From NCBI GenBank assembly GCA_030694425.1, contig JAUXYI010000008.1, positions 1 to 38,914 on the forward strand: a stretch of DNA of 38,914 nt. The letters run 5' to 3'. The notes under the pieces were generated by a model. It made no database searches and was not told where the DNA came from. It saw nothing but the letters and a program-made list of their open reading frames with translations. The position numbers were made by a program, and so were the translations under genes. Positions 3,814 through 23,377 of the stretch are shown here, one piece after another; position 1 is the first letter of the stretch; the number at the start of each line of letters is the position of its first letter. The stretch comes from Thermodesulfovibrionia bacterium. Its GTDB lineage: Bacteria > Nitrospirota > Thermodesulfovibrionia > UBA6902 > BMS3Bbin08.

Positions 3814-5934
3814 TCACAGCAGATTTATCGGGTCGACATCCACGTCAACTCTTATATTTTTAATATCTTTTGTTATTTCTAAAATCCCTAAAGCTGTATG
3901 ACGGAGGGATTTTGAGTTTTTGCCTTTTAGAATGAGATGCCATCTCCAGTAATTCCTGATTTTTTCAATGGGTGCAGGTGCAGGACCGAGAATCTCAATG
4001 TCTGATGTGTTCACTTGATAATCCCCCCTTCCCCCCTTTGTTAAAGGGGGGCGAGGGGGGATTATTTTTTCTATTCTTTTTGAAATATCTTTAATAATAT
4101 TCGCTGCACTATCTTTATTTTTAAAACTAAGAATAATTCTTATTAACTTGCCAAAAGGCGGATAAGACAGTTCTTTCCTTAATTCTATTTCTTTTTTATA
4201 AAATCCTTCGTAATCGTGATTCCTTACGTAGTCAAAGACATAATGAAGCGGTTCATAAGTCTGTATGTAAACCTCTCCTGCAACATCACCCCTCCCTGCC
4301 CTTCCGGCAAGCTGAGTAAAAAGCTGGAATGTTCTTTCTGACGACCTGAAGTCAGGCAGGTTCAACGCCACATCAGCAAACACAACCGCAGCAATCGTTA
4401 CATCGGGAAAATCATGCCCTTTAGCCACCATCTGCGTACCCAGAAGCACATCAATTTTCTTTTCTTCCATATCCTTTACTATTCTGTAGTGCGCAAGTTT
4501 TCTCTTAGTGGTATCCCTGTCCATTCTCTTCAGCGAAAGCTCAGGTATCAATGCGCGGAGTTCCTCTTCAATCCTCTGGGTGCCGATGCCTATATATTTT
4601 GTTTTGGTGCCTTTGCATTCAGGACAAAAATCCTGCGGCTCCAGATATGAATTGCAGTAATGACAGTTCAAGGTTTTCGTGTCTTTATGGTATGTAAGCG
4701 TGATGCTGCATGCGGGACACTTATATGTATATCCGCAGTCAGTGCACATGAGAAAAGGCGAATACCCTCTTCTGTTAAGCATTATGAGAGACTGGTGGCC
4801 CCGTGAAACATTTTCCTTCAAAACGCTCAATAATTTATTTGAATATGACAATGCCCTTTTATCCTCTTTTGTCATGTCTATAATCTCGACACGCGGCATT
4901 GGTTTTTGTTCAATTCTATGTTTAAGTTCAAGGTATCTGATGTTTCCTTTTTTTGCATGATAAAACGTCTCCATAGAAGGCGTAGCAGAACCAAGGACTA
5001 TTTTTATACCTTCAATCTTAGCCCTTGCAAGCGCAACGTCTCTTGCGCTGTATCTCAACCCCTCAAACTGTTTGTAAGATGCCTCATGCTCTTCATCAAT
5101 AACAATGAGTCCAAGATTTTTAAAAGGGGCAAATACGGCGCTTCTTACGCCAAGCGCAACTTTAACATCACCATTTCTAATCTTCCACCACTGCGATATT
5201 CTTTCACCCGGGGAAAGTCCGCTGTGGAAAAAAGCAACCTTTTCATGGAAACGGCTGCGGAATCTGTCAATAATCTGTGCTGTAAGGGCAATCTCAGGCA
5301 CAAGGACGATTGCCTCTTTATCGCCAAGCGCCTCAATAGCTCTGAGATAGACCTCGGTCTTTCCGCTCCCTGTGACTCCGTGAAGGAGAAAGGCGCCTGA
5401 CTGAACATTGGTAATCTCAGATAAAGCCTTTTTTTGTTCTGAATTTAGATTGAGGATTTTTACTGGTCTGATATCATCATAGGTAATTCTACTTTTCCCG
5501 CTTTTTTTCCCTTCAAAAATTCCTGATGGCACAGCGTTTTTCAATGCCAAACCAGAAGTGGAAATATAATATTGCCCTGTCCATTTAATTAGTTTTAATA
5601 AATTTTCAGGGATAAGAGGCTCTTCATCCAGAACTGCCTCGATTGTCTTGAGGGTTATTTCTTTTTTATCATTTAATTTATTTTTGTCGTTGCGAGCATC
5701 CGAAGGGTGCGTGGCAATCTTTTCGTCTGTCTTGAGATTGCTTCGTGGACTTTGTCCCCTCGCAATGACAGCTACGGAAGGATCCTTGTCAAATCCAACA
5801 ACTATGCCGACCTTTTTCCCTTTCTTAAACGGTGCAAGCACACGTATGCCGGTTTTGATTTTTGATTGCAGTTCGTCAGGAACTAAATACGTAAATGCCT
5901 CGGCGTTGATTGGGAATAAAACTTGGACATGCAT
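3814..5934 (-). CDS. priA: Primosomal replication-restart helicase PriA (with two repeat-derived insertions)
   Basis: A 3'->5' DEXH helicase that reloads the replisome at stalled forks. Motifs in order: Walker A GVTGSGKTE (about 184-192), DEEH (about 278), four Cys pairs for the two zinc ions (CTDC, CPAC, CHYC, CPEC, about residues 395-445), GTQMVAKGHDFP and QLAGRAGRGD. ATG 5934 is chosen because MHVQVLFP is the family's usual N-terminus and AAGAAGG precedes it at good spacing; a start 15 codons upstream is possible but not needed. Two stretches do not belong to the family: one from a GTCGTTGCGAG...CTCGCAATGAC repeat (about residues 55-83) and one reading PPRPPLTKGGRG (about 624-639). Both are in frame and in likely surface linkers, so the protein is probably functional. 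Confidence 0.95.
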   Translation of the reverse strand: MHVQVLFPINAEAFTYLVPDELQSKIKTGIRVLAPFKKGKKVGIVVGFDKDPSVAVIARGQSPRSNLKTDEKIATHPSDARNDKNKLNDKKEITLKTIEAVLDEEPLIPENLLKLIKWTGQYYISTSGLALKNAVPSGIFEGKKSGKSRITYDDIRPVKILNLNSEQKKALSEITNVQSGAFLLHGVTGSGKTEVYLRAIEALGDKEAIVLVPEIALTAQIIDRFRSRFHEKVAFFHSGLSPGERISQWWKIRNGDVKVALGVRSAVFAPFKNLGLIVIDEEHEASYKQFEGLRYSARDVALARAKIEGIKIVLGSATPSMETFYHAKKGNIRYLELKHRIEQKPMPRVEIIDMTKEDKRALSYSNKLLSVLKENVSRGHQSLIMLNRRGYSPFLMCTDCGYTYKCPACSITLTYHKDTKTLNCHYCNSYLEPQDFCPECKGTKTKYIGIGTQRIEEELRALIPELSLKRMDRDTTKRKLAHYRIVKDMEEKKIDVLLGTQMVAKGHDFPDVTIAAVVFADVALNLPDFRSSERTFQLFTQLAGRAGRGDVAGEVYIQTYEPLHYVFDYVRNHDYEGFYKKEIELRKELSYPPFGKLIRIILSFKNKDSAANIIKDISKRIEKIIPPRPPLTKGGRGDYQVNTSDIEILGPAPAPIEKIRNYWRWHLILKGKNSKSLRHTALGILEITKDIKNIRVDVDVDPINLL
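4018..4065. repeat. C/G-tract palindrome inside priA
   Basis: The arms ATAATCCCCCC (4018-4028) and GGGGGGATTAT (4055-4065) form a long hairpin. On the coding strand it reads PPRPPLTKGGRG, in frame. A related palindrome lies in the moeA-PBP fusion gene at 34558-34603. Confidence 0.8.
5686..5771. repeat. Dispersed repeat (GTCrTTGCGAG...CTCGCAATGAC) inside priA
   Basis: The ends GTCGTTGCGAG (5686-5696) and CTCGCAATGAC (5760-5770) are near-perfect inverted repeats around an imperfectly palindromic centre. It is translated in frame near the PriA N-terminus as ARGQSPRSNLKTDEKIATHP, a stretch with no counterpart in normal PriA. Confidence 0.75.
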
Positions 5935-5984
5935 TATGTGCCTTCTTCCTTCGTAGATTATTCCGAAAATTAAAAGCAAAAATT

Positions 5985-6040
5985 AAAAATCAAAATGTAT
6001 CCCGAATAGTCGGGATGATTTTTGATATTTAATTTTTAAT
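5985..6040. repeat. AT-rich palindromic repeat between priA and the P-ATPase
   Basis: An inverted repeat of the form ATTAAAAATCAAAA ... TTTTTGATATTTAATTTTTAAT is centred on a small hairpin ATCCCGA-ATAG-TCGGGAT (6000-6017). The P-ATPase stop codon and its last residues (KIKN) fall within the element. A similar AT-rich block lies at 20456-20575. Confidence 0.6.
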
Positions 6041-8791
6041 CTTTCTCCTGAACCACCATTTTTCTATTTCAACTGCAAAGAATACCACGGTTGAAAGGGC
6101 AAGTGTGAACGTCAATTCATTCAGAGATAATGGTTCTGTCTTGAATATGGGATTTAATACTGGTAAATATATGGTTGCCATTTGCAGGGCAAAGGTCAAG
6201 GCAAAAGCGCCTAACAGAGGTTTGTTCGACAGCAGTCCCTGACTGAAAAGGGATTCTTTCTCCGACCTTATGGCAAGGACATGCCCCATCTGACTTAAAC
6301 AGAGCACGGTAAATACCATGGTCTGCCAGTGAGCGCTGCCTGTCCTTATGGACCATGCCTGCGTAAAAAGCGATGCCGCTCCCATTAAAAGACCAACCCA
6401 GACAATATGAGTTCCGAGACCATGTGAAAATATACTCTCCTTTGGATGTCGCGGTGGCCTCTGCATAATGCCCTTTTCTGCGGGCTCTGCTGAAAGGGCA
6501 AGTCCGGGGAGACCGTCAGTAACGAGATTAATCCAGAGTATATGTATCGGCAGAAGGGGAATAGGGAGACCCAGAAATGGCGCAAGAAATATTGTCCATA
6601 TCTCACCTGAATTGCTTGTCATGGTGTATTTTATGAACTTTCGGATGTTATCGAATATCCTTCTCCCTTCTTTCACTGCCTTAACAATAGTGGCAAAGTT
6701 GTCATCAATGAGAATCATATGGGCTGCCTCTTTTGAGACATCTGTCCCTGTAATTCCCATTGCCACGCCGATATCCGCCCTCTTTAACGCAGGTGCATCA
6801 TTGACACCATCCCCTGTCATGGCAACAAACTGTCCTTTGTCCTGAAGCGCCTTTATTATCTTTAACTTCTGTTCAGGCGCAACCCGTGCATATATCCTTA
6901 TATGCTCAACTCTTTCTTCAAACTCCTCTAAAGATAATTTTTCAAGCTCCCTTCCCGTAATTATTGCCTTTGAGTCTTCTTTAAGAATGCCAAGACTCCT
7001 TGCAATTGTCCTTGCTGTAAGGGGGTGATCACCTGTTATCATCACTGGTTTTATTCCTGCTGTTTTGCACATAGCAACAGCTTCTTTTGCCTCTTCTCTC
7101 GGAGGGTCCATCATACCTGTTAGACCTAAAATAGTGAGGCCTTTTTCCGTCTTCTCATGAGACATGTCATCAGGCAGGCTACCCCACTTTCTCATGGCAA
7201 TGCCAAGAACCCTCAGCCCATCAGCAGCCATCCTATCGCTGACCTTCAGGATTTCTTCTCTGTCTATTTCCCTCAAACCCTCAGACGTCAGGATGCTGTC
7301 TGATTTATCAATCAGGACTTCTATCGCACCCTTGGTGAAGGAAACAAATCTATTTCCACCCTCCCCCTCACCCCCTCCCATCAAGGGAGGGGGAATAGTT
7401 GGGACGTCTCTCATCAATGGAGAAGAAAGTCCCCTCTCCCCTTGCGGGAGAGGGATAGGGTGAGGGGGGATTTTGTGAAACGTCGTCATGCATTTTCTGT
7501 CTGAGTCAAACGGAATTTCAGCTACTCTCGGAAATTCTTTTTCAAGTTCCTGCTTATTGAATCCATTCTTATCCGCAATATCAAAAAGTGCAGTCTCCGT
7601 GGGGTCTCCCATCAGCTTGCCGTCTTTATCCAAAACAGCGTCATTGCTGAGGGCAAGAGCAGTGAAAAAAGTGACAAGTGACGGGTGACGAGTGACAAGT
7701 TCTGGATGCTCTCTCAGATCTTTACTCGTAACTCGTAACCCGTAACCCGTTACTATCTTCCCATCCACATACATCTCTTCCACAGTCATCTTGTTCATCG
7801 TAAGCGTGCCTGTCTTATCTGAACATATGTAAGTAACAGAGCCGAGGGTTTCTACCGCAGGAAGTTTCCTTATGAGGGCATTCTGTTTTACCAGCTTCTT
7901 TGCCCCGAGGGCAAGGGATATTGTTATCACTGCAGGAAGCGCCTCAGGTATTGCAGCAACTGCAAGAGAAATTGCCGTAAGAAGCATCAGTAACGGCTGT
8001 TCTCCCCTGATCAAGCCGACACCAAAAACTATGGCGCATATGGCAAGGACAGCAATGGCAAGTTTTTGTCCGAATACGGCGAGCCTTTTCTGGAGAGGTG
8101 TTTTTACCTCTTCTTCTTCCTGGAGCATGGCAGCGATCCTGCCAAGCTCCGTATTCATGCCTGTTGCAACAATAATGCCGGTTCCGCGCCCATAGGTCAC
8201 GAATGTGCCTTTGTATGCTATGTTCTTCCTATCTCCTATTGGCAAATGCTCATCATGCAAGGCATTGGTATGTTTTTCAACCGGCACTGACTCGCCGGTG
8301 AGGGCTGCCTCTTCTACCTTCAATTGTGCAGACTCAATTAACCTTATATCAGCAGGAACAATCTTCCCAGCCTCAAGGATTACAACATCTCCCGGAACAA
8401 GCTGAGAGGCTGATACGGTTTCAGGCACGCCATTCCTTATTGCCGTTGCAGAAGGCGCAGCCATCTTTTTAAGGGCAGCCATCGCTTTTTCAGCCCTGTA
8501 CTCCTGTATGAAACCGATAACTGCATTGAGAATAACAATTACAATTATTGCTATGGTGTCCGAAAGTTCGCCTATGAACCCTGAGATAACCGCAGCAGCG
8601 ATTAGCACGATAATCATAAAATCCTTGAACTGGTCAAGGAACATCATGAAAAGGGTCTTCTTCGCTTTCTCCTTTAATTCGTTAGGACCATATTCCCCGA
8701 GCCGCCTGACAGCTTCCTCGGAAGAAATGCCCTGTAAGGATGACTTTAGTTCGTCAATGACCTCATTTATATTTTTTTGATGCCAGCGCAT
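6029..8791 (-). CDS. Cation-transporting P-type ATPase, probably Ca2+ (SERCA/PMR1-like)
   Basis: An inner-membrane ATP-driven cation pump. Motifs in order: TGES (about 165), phosphorylation loop DKTGTLT (about 323), TGDHPLTA and hinge [11 protein letters not shown] (about 654). Ca2+-type transport motifs are PEALP in M4 and [12 protein letters not shown] in M6, which point to the type IIA Ca2+ family; the exact ion is not provable here. ATG 8791 is favoured over 8797 because GAGG sits eight bases upstream. Two in-frame insertions of repeat DNA are visible: about residues 346-373 (LRVTS ... VTRHPSL) and about 440-478 ([12 protein letters not shown] ... [11 protein letters not shown]), both in the cytoplasmic nucleotide-binding domain. 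The core motifs are intact, so it is probably active. Confidence 0.9.
7357..7470. repeat. C/G-rich compound palindrome inside the P-ATPase gene
   Basis: About 114 bases with inverted ends (CCCTCCCCCTCACCCC ... GGGTGAGGGGGGA) plus inner C-rich/G-rich hairpins. It is read in frame as [13 protein letters not shown]...[12 protein letters not shown]. The composition is unlike the surrounding gene, and the stretch has no place in the P-ATPase nucleotide-binding fold, so it is interpreted as an inserted repeat. Confidence 0.75.
7671..7752. repeat. Two-part GTGACGAGT / GTAACTCGT repeat inside the P-ATPase gene
   Basis: On the plus strand, tandem GTGACAAGTGACGGGTGACGA-type heptamer-like units (7671-7700) are followed about 20 bases later by CTCGTAACTCGTAACCCGTAA units (7722-7752). 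The gene reads them as GLRVTS and VTRHPSLVT. The same two-part arrangement, and the same translated words, appear in fdhA at 21438-21555. Confidence 0.8.
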
Positions 8792-8873
8792 GCACATTAC
8801 CTCAATTTACTAATATAAGTTCATAAAGTAACACCACGACAACTTTTTGGACTTTTTACAAGTTCGTCAAGAT

Positions 8874-20575: not shown

Positions 20576-20587
20576 AGGTTTTAAATT

Positions 20588-23377
20588 ATGGTAAATCTTA
20601 CAATAGACGGAATCAAATTTACTGCTCCTGACGGTACATCTGTGCTTGATGCAGCCAGACGGCATGGCATCTCTATACCGACATTATGCCACCATCCAAA
20701 GCTTACGCCATACGGCGGATGCAGACTCTGCATAGTTGAGATTAAAGGAATCCCCAGACCTGTAACAGCGTGTACTACGCCTGTAACCGAGGGAATGGAG
20801 GTTACCACAATAAATCCCTATTTAGAAAAATTAAGAAGAACCACCCTTGAGCTTATTTTATCAGACCATCCTAATGACTGCATGGTTTGTGAGAAAGCAG
20901 GAGACTGCACCTTGCAGGAGCTTGCATATTTTTATGGTCTGAGAGAAAACAGATTTCTTGGAGAAAGGCGGATTTATACAAAAAAGGATGGAAATCCATT
21001 AATTGAAAGGGATATGGAAAAATGCATACTCTGCAATAAATGCGTGAGGGTATGCAATGAGATCCAGGGAGTAACTGCTATTGATATTGCATATAGAGGT
21101 TTTAAATCTAAAGTATGTCCGCCCTATGAGCGCGATTTAGACTGCGAATTCTGCGGCCAGTGTATAAGGGTTTGTCCGACCGGAGCGCTGACAGGGAAGA
21201 TGTGGACTCTTAAAGGCAGGCAAAAAGATATTAAAGAGATTGACACTATCTGCCCTTACTGTGGATGTGGATGTAATCTCACTCTTAACATAAGGAAAAA
21301 CGAAATAGTCAGAGTAACCTCAAGAGAGGATACTATAAATGAAGGTTGGCTGTGTGCTAAAGGAACTTTTGGATATACCTTTGTCAATAACCCCGCCAGA
21401 TTAACAAAGCCCCTTATAAGAATAGCACCAAAAAACAGTAACGAGTTACGAGTTACGAGTTACGAGTTAAAAAACAAAAAAGATTCCGAAGACTTGTCAC
21501 TCATCACTCGTCACTCGTCACTTGAAAAGTCACTCGTCACTCGTCACTCGTCACTTTTCAGGGAAGCAACATGGGATGAGGTGTTTGACCTCATAGCAAA
21601 AAAATTTACAAAAATAAAAGAACAATACGGCCCTGATTCCATCGGCAGTCTATCTTCCGCAAGATGCACGAATGAAGAGAATTATCTTTTCCAGAAATTC
21701 ATGAGGGCAGTAATAGGAACAAATAATGTAGACCACTGCGCCCGTTTTTGACACAGCGCAACCGTGGCCGGTCTGGCCGCAGTGTTCGGCTCAGGCGCAA
21801 TGACAAATTCAATACCCGAGATAGAAAACAATGACGTCCTTTTTGTAATAGGCTCTAATACCACCGAAACACATCCGATTATCGGCATCAGGATGAAAAA
21901 GGCAGTTAGAAAAGGCGCTAAACTCATTGTCGCAGACCCGAGGAAAATAAATTTAGTCAGATTCGCAGACTCATGGATGCAGCAAAAACCAGGCACAGAT
22001 GTGGTACTGCTCAATGCAATGATGCATGTACTGCTCAAAAATAATCTCATTGACAGAGTATTTATTCTCATAAGAACCGAAGGGTTTGAATCTTTCAAAG
22101 AGGGTCTTGAAAAATACACGCCTGAATACGCCGAGAAAATTACAGGCGTACCCAAACAGGATATAATTAAAGCCGCATTGTTATATGGCAATGCCGAGAG
22201 ACCTGCTATTTATTACACCATGGGCATTACCCAGCACTCGCACGGCACAGACAACGTCTATGCCATAGCAAACCTCGCACTAATGACAGGCAACCTTGGA
22301 ATGGAAAGCACAGGCGTTAATCCGCTCAGAGGACAAAACAATGTTCAGGGCTCTACAGACATGGGCTGCATACCTGACCAGTACCCGGGTTATCAGAAAG
22401 TCAATTTATCAGCAATAAAGTCAAAATTTGAAAAGGCATGGGGAGTAAAACTTTCAAACAAAGTCGGCCTAACTGCCATGGAGATGATGGGCGCAGCTAT
22501 TGAAGGCAAAATGAAAGCAATGTATATAATGGGAGAAAATCCTGTGCTCAGCGACCCTGACATGAACCATACACTTAAGGCGCTTAATAAACTGGATTTC
22601 CTTGTTGTTCAGGATTTATTCCTGACAGAAACAGCAGAGCTCGCCGATGTAGTGCTGCCTGCTGCATCTTTTGCAGAAAAAGACGGCACATTCACCAATA
22701 CCGAAAGAAGGATACAGAGAGTAAGAAAGGCATTAAATCCTCCCGGAGAGGCGAAAGAAGATTCAGTGATAATCAGGGAATTAAGTGAAAAACTTGGTTA
22801 TCCAATGAAATATAATTTTATAGAAGAGGTGTTTCAGGAAATCGGAAGTCTCTGGCAGGCAGTAGCAGGGGTAACATACGGCAGAATAGACAAGTGGGGA
22901 GTCCAGTGGCCATGCCCTACCCTTGACCACCCGGGCACTCCATATCTTTTCAAAGGAGGATTTCCAAGAGGAAAAGCTGCGTTTACTGTGGTAGAATACA
23001 AACCATCCAAGGAACTGCCTGACGAAGAATATCCATTTGTTCTTTCAACAGGAAGACACCTGTTCCTTTATCATACAGGAACAATGATAAGAAAAGGGGA
23101 TGCCCTGAGTAAAGTTCTTCCGGAAGCCTATGTTGAGCTAAGCCCTGATGATGCTAATCAGTTAGGTGTAAGTAACAGCCAAAAAGTAAGGGTATCTTCA
23201 AGAAGGGGTTCAATAGAAGTAAAAATACAGGTGTCCAAAAGGGTCGGGAAAGGCATGGTTTTCATACCATTTCATTATAAAGAGGCAGCAGCAAATATGC
23301 TTACAAACACTGCCCTTGATCCGATTGCCAAAATTCCTGAATTAAAAGTATGTGCAGTGAAAATAGAAAAAATATAA
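20588..23377 (+). CDS. fdhA: Selenocysteine-containing formate dehydrogenase catalytic subunit (molybdopterin)
   Basis: One gene of 929 residues read through an in-frame TGA at 21749-21751 (residue 388). The sequence before it, NNVDHCARF, and after it, HSATVAGLA, are the formate-dehydrogenase active site, where Sec or Cys binds the Mo/W; here it is Sec. Domains: N-terminal [2Fe-2S] (C-H-H ... CRLC), His-Cys [4Fe-4S] (HPNDCMVCEKAGDC), 2x[4Fe-4S] ferredoxin (CILCNKCVRVC, CEFCGQCIRVC), [4Fe-4S] Mopterin domain (CPYCGCGC), catalytic domains, and the C-terminal molydopterin-binding domain. It oxidises formate or reduces CO2, with electrons via the NuoE/F-like proteins. A 45-residue linker before REATWDEV (21424-21560) is repeat-derived and in frame. 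Expression requires SelA, SelB, SelC and SelD, none of which is in this window. Confidence 0.93.
21438..21555. repeat. Two-part GAGTTACGAGTTACGA / CACTCGTCACTC repeat inside fdhA
   Basis: Tandem TAACGAGTTACGAGTTACGA units are followed, after a spacer, by CACTCGTCACTCGTCACTTG units. They are translated as NELRVTSYEL and ITRHSSLEKSLVTRHSSL in the linker before the Mopterin fold. The same words occur in the P-ATPase at 7671-7752. Confidence 0.85.
21749..21790 (+). promoter_or_regulatory. Bacterial SECIS-like hairpin directing selenocysteine insertion at UGA
   Basis: Directly after the TGA, a 6-bp stem (21764-21769 with 21775-21780: GTGGCC/GGCCGC, one G-T pair) closes a GGTCT loop at 21770-21774. 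The 18-base spacing from TGA to the loop and the GGUCU loop match the E. coli fdhF SECIS as I remember it. It would be the SelB binding site. Confidence 0.85.

What the first reader, a model, noticed from the sequence alone, without database searches (positions are those of the whole stretch)
5686..5771. GTCrTTGCGAG...CTCGCAATGAC dispersed repeat forms part of the PriA N-terminal region
Seen: inverted ends and an imperfect palindromic body of 85 bases, read as about 28 extra residues between the N-terminal DNA-binding part and the helicase core. With the second insertion, priA carries two different repeat families in one essential gene.
Basis: partly seen in the sequence, partly recalled or inferred. 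Interest (0 to 1): 0.55.

Follow-up and report, generated by a model that had tools for sequence, protein, structure and literature searches.

The report
Mobile-type repeat translated inside PriA loop
A small dispersed hairpin repeat has landed in frame in a flexible loop of the DNA-repair helicase PriA and adds 28 amino acids; related bacteria carry quite different repeats in that same loop, so this looks like junk DNA being tolerated where a protein can afford it rather than a new function.

Summary
Confirmed. Window 5685-5770 is a full-length copy of a dispersed palindromic repeat: two half-units with TGTC tags outward. The arm GTCRTTGCGAG occurs 176 times in this 2.42-Mb genome, against 1 for the reversed control. 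On the minus strand it is an open part of priA (3814-5934) and encodes residues 56-83. The second insert (about 4022-4060) is a different family. It is not special to priA: 18 of 110 repeat clusters lie inside ORFs, 15 of them in Pfam-recognised genes. The same priA loop carries repeats of four families in 13 of 46 priA genes, and the mnmE G4-G5 loop carries repeats in 12 of 30 genes. The sister species G034 and G019 carry different families in the priA loop. Best reading: a CGTC/TGTC-tagged REP element tolerated in a permissive loop, as described for Rickettsia palindromic elements and intragenic REPs. The kind is known; repeated occupation of the same loops by unrelated repeats is a testable variant.

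The parts
3814..5934 (-). priA (primosomal protein N', 706 aa, ATG at 5934)
   Evidence: Pfam PriA_3primeBD, DEAD, Zn_ribbon_PriA, PriA_C; PDB PriA E 8e-127
5685..5770 (.). complete repeat element, HH-type dimer with outward TGTC tags; encodes PriA residues 56-83
5686..5719 (+). half-unit 1 (GTCGTTGCGAG, inner stem, GTGGCAATC)
   Evidence: sequence; half-unit pattern counted
5736..5769 (-). half-unit 2 (GTCATTGCGAG, inner stem GGAC/GTCC, GAAGCAATC)
   Evidence: sequence
5720..5735 (.). spacer between the half-units
   Evidence: sequence
4022..4060 (-). second insert, different family (CCCCCYTT..AAGGGGG), read as PPRPPLTKGGRGD in the C-terminal domain
   Evidence: aligned loop in relatives

Best explanation
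The 86-bp stretch is one copy of a REP-like, hairpin-forming dispersed repeat (TGTC/CGTC-tagged, head-to-head dimer). It multiplied in this lineage and inserted into a loop inside PriA's 3'BD. It survived because it kept the frame, is free of stops in that frame, and adds a charged, probably flexible 28-residue stretch where PriA tolerates length change. Shown: the repeat family, its in-frame position, its absence from most relatives, the presence of unrelated repeats in the same loop in relatives, the same pattern in mnmE, and the rarity of copies inside genes. Inferred: that the peptide is translated and retained, that it is functionally neutral, and how the element moves.
For: 176 exact 11-mers against control 1; 19 full sites against 0. 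Lineage-specific bursts: 138, 95, 90 and 37 copies in G034, G012, G009 and G013, but 0-2 in many relatives. Half-unit anatomy: T or C precedes GTC in 117 of 120 units; inner stem of at least 4 bp in 34 of 82 distinct units against 6.8% of shuffles. Adjacent copies: 46 HH, 17 HT, 3 TT. Copies are depleted in genes: 18 of 110 clusters inside ORFs, against 0.74 of window positions (p 4e-36). Same loop, other families: 13 of 46 priA genes (A in 4, B in 5, C in 3, D in 1) and 12 of 30 mnmE genes. All 11 strict gene-by-family occurrences (A, C, D) in priA and all 12 (A, C, D, E) in mnmE fall in these loops. Tree: at least 11 state changes; sisters G034 and G019 (SH-aLRT 100) carry families A and C. 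The loop is more hydrophilic than the protein (Kyte-Doolittle -1.39 against -0.34).
Against: No expression or protein data. No DNA-level empty site was compared. No mobiliser was found: of 7 Y1-transposase loci only one has a single copy nearby. The loop is in the domain reported to recognise the DNA 3' end, so neutrality is not certain. Of the 15 Pfam-supported in-gene clusters, 12 read the left arm as VIA and 1 as SLR (my count), although both phases are open equally often in dimers (28 and 28 of 66 orientations); plain tolerance does not explain that bias. In the three relatives' priA genes with this family the phase is SLR.
Confidence: 0.85

Rival explanations
1. The insert is a useful module: repeat-derived peptides tune DNA binding of PriA or slow translation at a domain boundary, and the same loop is refilled because occupation is favoured.
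For: Repeated occupation of one loop by four repeat families in 13 of 46 genes, and of the mnmE loop in 12 of 30; phase bias of in-gene copies.
Against: Different families encode unrelated peptides in the same loop; most relatives lack a counted repeat there (33 of 46); many unrelated genes carry the same element.
Confidence: 0.08
2. One ancient insertion inherited vertically and since degraded or replaced.
For: Family A sits at nearly the same aligned residues (54-56 to 80-86) in four genomes; G006 and G013, both family A, are sisters.
Against: Family A needs 3 changes on the tree; relatives in between have other families or none; bodies of the inserts differ.
Confidence: 0.05
3. Assembly error, or a decaying priA pseudogene.
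For: The genome is a 101-contig assembly and the repeat is multicopy.
Against: The whole 706-codon frame is open with all PriA domains; the same kind of insert is seen in separate assemblies of relatives.
Confidence: 0.02

Closest known systems
CGTC-tagged REP superfamily (PMC3733652; passages and sections 5, 6 and 15 read)
   Same: (C/T)GTC tag outside the stem, stem starting AT, HH dimers predominant, no dedicated transposase, some units inside genes, many of them DNA synthesis and repair genes
   Different: The stem here is 5 bp plus a variable inner hairpin, not a plain 8-9 bp stem with a 4-5 base loop. The terms Nitrospira, Thermodesulfovibrio, priA and mnmE do not occur in that main text.
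Rickettsia palindromic elements, RPE (review PMC10969869, passages seen; original papers recalled, not held)
   Same: Palindromic repeats inserted in frame in many unrelated genes and read as part of the protein
   Different: Different bacterial group; elements of about 150 bp in the review passage against 86 bp here. RPE-4 and RPE-6 are equated with CGTC-4 and CGTC-1 in PMC3733652, but their sequences could not be compared here.
REPINs with RAYT transposases (PMC3116915, search listing only)
   Same: Two inverted hairpin units with a spacer, within-genome spread
   Different: Tag TGTC, not GTAG; no RAYT-type gene flanked on both sides by the repeat

Membership tests
CGTC-tagged REP | Unpaired CGTC (often TGTC) tag at one end | tested here: met
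   T in 110 and C in 7 of 120 half-units before GTC
CGTC-tagged REP | Stem beginning with complementary A and T | tested here: met
   ATTGC/GCAAT in this element except one A-to-G change in one arm; the half-unit pattern itself requires most of it
CGTC-tagged REP | Stem of 8-9 bp and loop of 4-5 bases | tested here: inconclusive
   Outer stem 5 bp, then mismatches and a variable inner stem (sequence); the family figure is not held
CGTC-tagged REP | HH dimers predominant | tested here: met
   46 HH, 17 HT, 3 TT among adjacent copies within 250 bp
CGTC-tagged REP | No associated transposase | tested here: met
   7 Y1_Tnp loci, one with a single copy upstream, none flanked on both sides
Rickettsia palindromic element | In-frame insertion within conserved protein genes | tested here: met
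   15 of 110 clusters lie in Pfam-recognised ORFs
Rickettsia palindromic element | Sequence match to an RPE family | not tested
   No RPE sequence was available; the paper PMC186582 is not held
REPIN/RAYT | GTAG-tagged units mobilised by a flanking RAYT | tested here: not met
   Tag is TGTC; no RAYT-type gene flanked on both sides

The most novel reading that the evidence does not exclude
In this order, a few surface loops of core proteins (PriA 3'BD, PriA C-terminal domain, MnmE G4-G5) are recurrent docking sites that are emptied and refilled by unrelated repeat families, so that repeats are a continuing source of new protein segments, some of them kept for a benefit or guided there.
Probability: 0.12. 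Interest if true: 0.7.

Novelty: new variant of a known kind. Interest (0 to 1): 0.42.

Why it matters
In-frame palindromic repeats are best known from Rickettsia and a few REP-rich genomes. Here one small genome and its relatives show them in many core genes, and the same loop is filled by different families in sister species. That gives a natural test of which protein loops tolerate insertion, and warns annotators that peptides such as VIAR...KQS...RNDK or PPLTKGG are repeat products rather than protein family features.

Tried and rejected
Rfam on 5400-6060 gave only matches below gathering scores. A Y1/RAYT mobiliser next to the repeat was looked for and not found. Plasmid records gave only short, mostly weak matches. 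PriA relatives among viral contigs: none. Searching papers for the arm sequence and repeat peptides gave nothing on point, nor did priA with palindromic repeat terms.

Results against or off the pattern. Family B (7-base CAGnRG units) also hits priA outside the loops in four genes (aligned residues 453 in G015, G027, G043 and 679 in G008), probably ordinary codons; family B was left out of the strict count. Two one-mismatch family A hits lie outside the loop in mnmE (G017, G043), one B hit lies at the start of the G040 mnmE frame, and several 'A' hits in mnmE are ends of family E; these rows were left out of the strict count, whereas the one-mismatch arms of G006 priA were kept in. G010, G012 and G036 have degenerate repeat-like priA loops that the patterns did not count. 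Of 50 priA loci, 4 (G049, G050, G052, G055) gave no ORF and were dropped. mnmE was read only in the 30 loci returned, of 60 genomes with a match. Three of the 18 in-ORF clusters have no Pfam match, and two of these (C21, C59) are probably spurious ORFs.

Full report
Observation. The stretch 5686-5769 begins with GTCGTTGCGAG and ends with the reverse complement of GTCATTGCGAG; with the T before each GTC the element is 5685-5770. Each end belongs to a half-unit of the form TGTC-ATTGC-GAG-(inner hairpin)-GAAGCAATC or GTGGCAATC, and the two half-units face each other with tags outward. The strand folds at -27 kcal/mol, z -3.13 against shuffles.

Dispersal. In the window's own genome (2,417,392 bases, 101 contigs) GTCRTTGCGAG occurs 93 + 83 = 176 times, the reversed control once. 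Full-length sites with 35-65 bases between the arms number 19, each listed on both strands, control 0. The 176 arms fall into 110 clusters. Among 120 half-units read in the fetched loci, the base before GTC is T in 110 and C in 7; of 82 distinct inner segments 34 have a perfect stem of at least 4 bp, against 6.8% of shuffled ones. Adjacent copies are head-to-head 46, head-to-tail 17, tail-to-tail 3. Among 61 genomes (own and 60 relatives) the counts are very uneven: 176 here, 138 in G034, 95 in G012, 90 in G009, 37 in G013, 303 in the more distant G060, but 0-2 in many.

Place in PriA. The gene at 3814-5934 on the minus strand is priA: Pfam finds the 3'BD, helicase, Zn-ribbon and C-terminal domains, and solved PriA structures match at E 8e-127. 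The element encodes residues 56-83 of 706. The 3'BD model matches in two stretches, and in the PDB alignment query 3-48 pairs with chain 22-64 and query 94 onward with 74 onward, so 45 residues here stand for 9 in that chain. The insert is therefore inside the 3'BD, not between the DNA-binding region and the helicase core. Asp17 of E. coli PriA, in the same 3'BD, is reported as crucial for recognising the DNA 3' end (PMC4129139, passages); that Lys61, just behind the loop, takes part is recalled and comes from no call. A second insert, PPRPPLTKGGRGD, lies in the C-terminal domain (4022-4060) and belongs to another palindromic family that is abundant in this genome (96 forward and 60 reverse matches, sites counted more than once; control 0).

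Relatives. A PriA-like match was found in all 61 genomes by protein search, counting weak helicase matches; 50 priA loci were read and 46 gave ORFs. Loop 1 (own residues 46-86) holds the present family in G000, G006, G013 and G034; 7-base CAGnRG units in G015, G029, G031, G037 and G040; GTAGGGGC hairpins in G008, G019 and G028; and the CCCCCTT..AAGGGGG family in G023: 13 of 46. Loop 2 holds the last family in G000, G006 and G031. All 11 strict gene-by-family occurrences (families A, C, D) are in these two loops, none elsewhere. Pattern counts show these families as dispersed repeats among these genomes, above the reversed-pattern control in most of those that carry them in priA. On a PriA tree built without the loops the loop states need 11 changes and family A 3; G034 (family A) and G019 (family C) are sisters with support 100. 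Counts of changes do not separate gain from loss.

A second gene for comparison. mnmE of this genome carries the same repeat plus a run of another one in its G domain. In 30 mnmE loci (of 60 genomes with a match) the same loop holds repeats in 12 genes: the present family with a second one (G000), GTAGGGGC (G008, G027, G028, G029, G040), CCCCCTT (G009, G018, G036), ATTCCCGCGAAAGCGGGAAT (G006, G013, G043). All 12 strict occurrences are in that loop. So priA is one case of a general habit.

Genome-wide. All 110 clusters were fetched and classified. 18 lie inside an ORF of at least 150 codons with 30 codons on either side. In the window 73.7% of positions meet that criterion, so copies are strongly depleted in genes (p 4e-36; the window is taken as typical, an assumption). 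15 of the 18 are in ORFs with Pfam matches: priA, mnmE, rsmG (GidB), queH, a PmbA/TldD peptidase, a GH3 hydrolase, an SLT transglycosylase, a CobB/CbiA-type protein, a UDPGP protein, a DHODB-type Fe-S protein, a ferredoxin, a DNA methylase (two clusters) and two integrases. The inserts mostly read VIAR...KQS...RNDK.

Mechanism. The simplest account is insertion of a REP-like element, mechanism of movement unknown, followed by selection that removes nearly all insertions in genes except those that keep the frame and fall in permissive loops. Of 33 dimers 13 have a length divisible by three, and in 66 orientations the three phases are open in 28, 28 and 24 cases, so an in-frame, stop-free insertion is not rare. 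That different families occupy one loop in sister species argues that the site, not the sequence, is what is tolerated. The bias of in-gene copies towards the VIA phase (12 against 1, my count) is unexplained.

Known kinds. CGTC-tagged REPs (PMC3733652: passages, sections 5, 6 and 15) share the tag, AT-starting stem, HH dimers, lack of transposase and intragenic units; that paper also notes different REPs at about the same site in recB of two Xanthomonas species, a precedent for the priA pattern. Rickettsia palindromic elements are the classical case of repeats inside protein genes (review PMC10969869, passages). The main text of PMC3733652 does not contain priA or mnmE, and my searches found no paper on repeats in priA; the library lacks most subscription journals. 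I file the element as a CGTC-type REP with the stem-length criterion open, and the phenomenon as RPE-like.

Noticed in passing
window 7363-7478 and 7665-7757: The neighbouring P-type ATPase gene (6029-8797) also reads through two repeat-like stretches, one of CCTCACCCC/GGGAGAGGG type and one of GTGACnnGTGAC / AACTCGTAAC type.
   Followed up: partly
window 21529-21547: GTCACTCGTCACTCGTCAC tandem units inside an ORF at 20585-21748.
   Followed up: no
L242 (mnmE), L291-L320: The MnmE G4-G5 loop is filled by repeats of several families in 12 of 30 loci read.
   Followed up: yes
L103-L220: The same repeat arms occur in many phyla, from Chloroflexota to Pedobacter and Okeania, which is unusually wide for a short repeat.
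   Followed up: partly
L031 against relatives (PriA tree): PriA of this genome groups among genomes of genus g9 (family f3) rather than with G003 of its own family f1: possible transfer or a classification conflict.
   Followed up: no
in-gene copies listed: 12 of 15 Pfam-supported in-gene copies use the VIA reading phase although the SLR phase is open as often in dimers.
   Followed up: partly
own-genome contigs C12:748, C48:13227, C62:12554 (L013, L011, L030): Several copies share near-identical bodies and flanks (aaatgttgttacatt...), so a larger composite repeat seems to exist.
   Followed up: no
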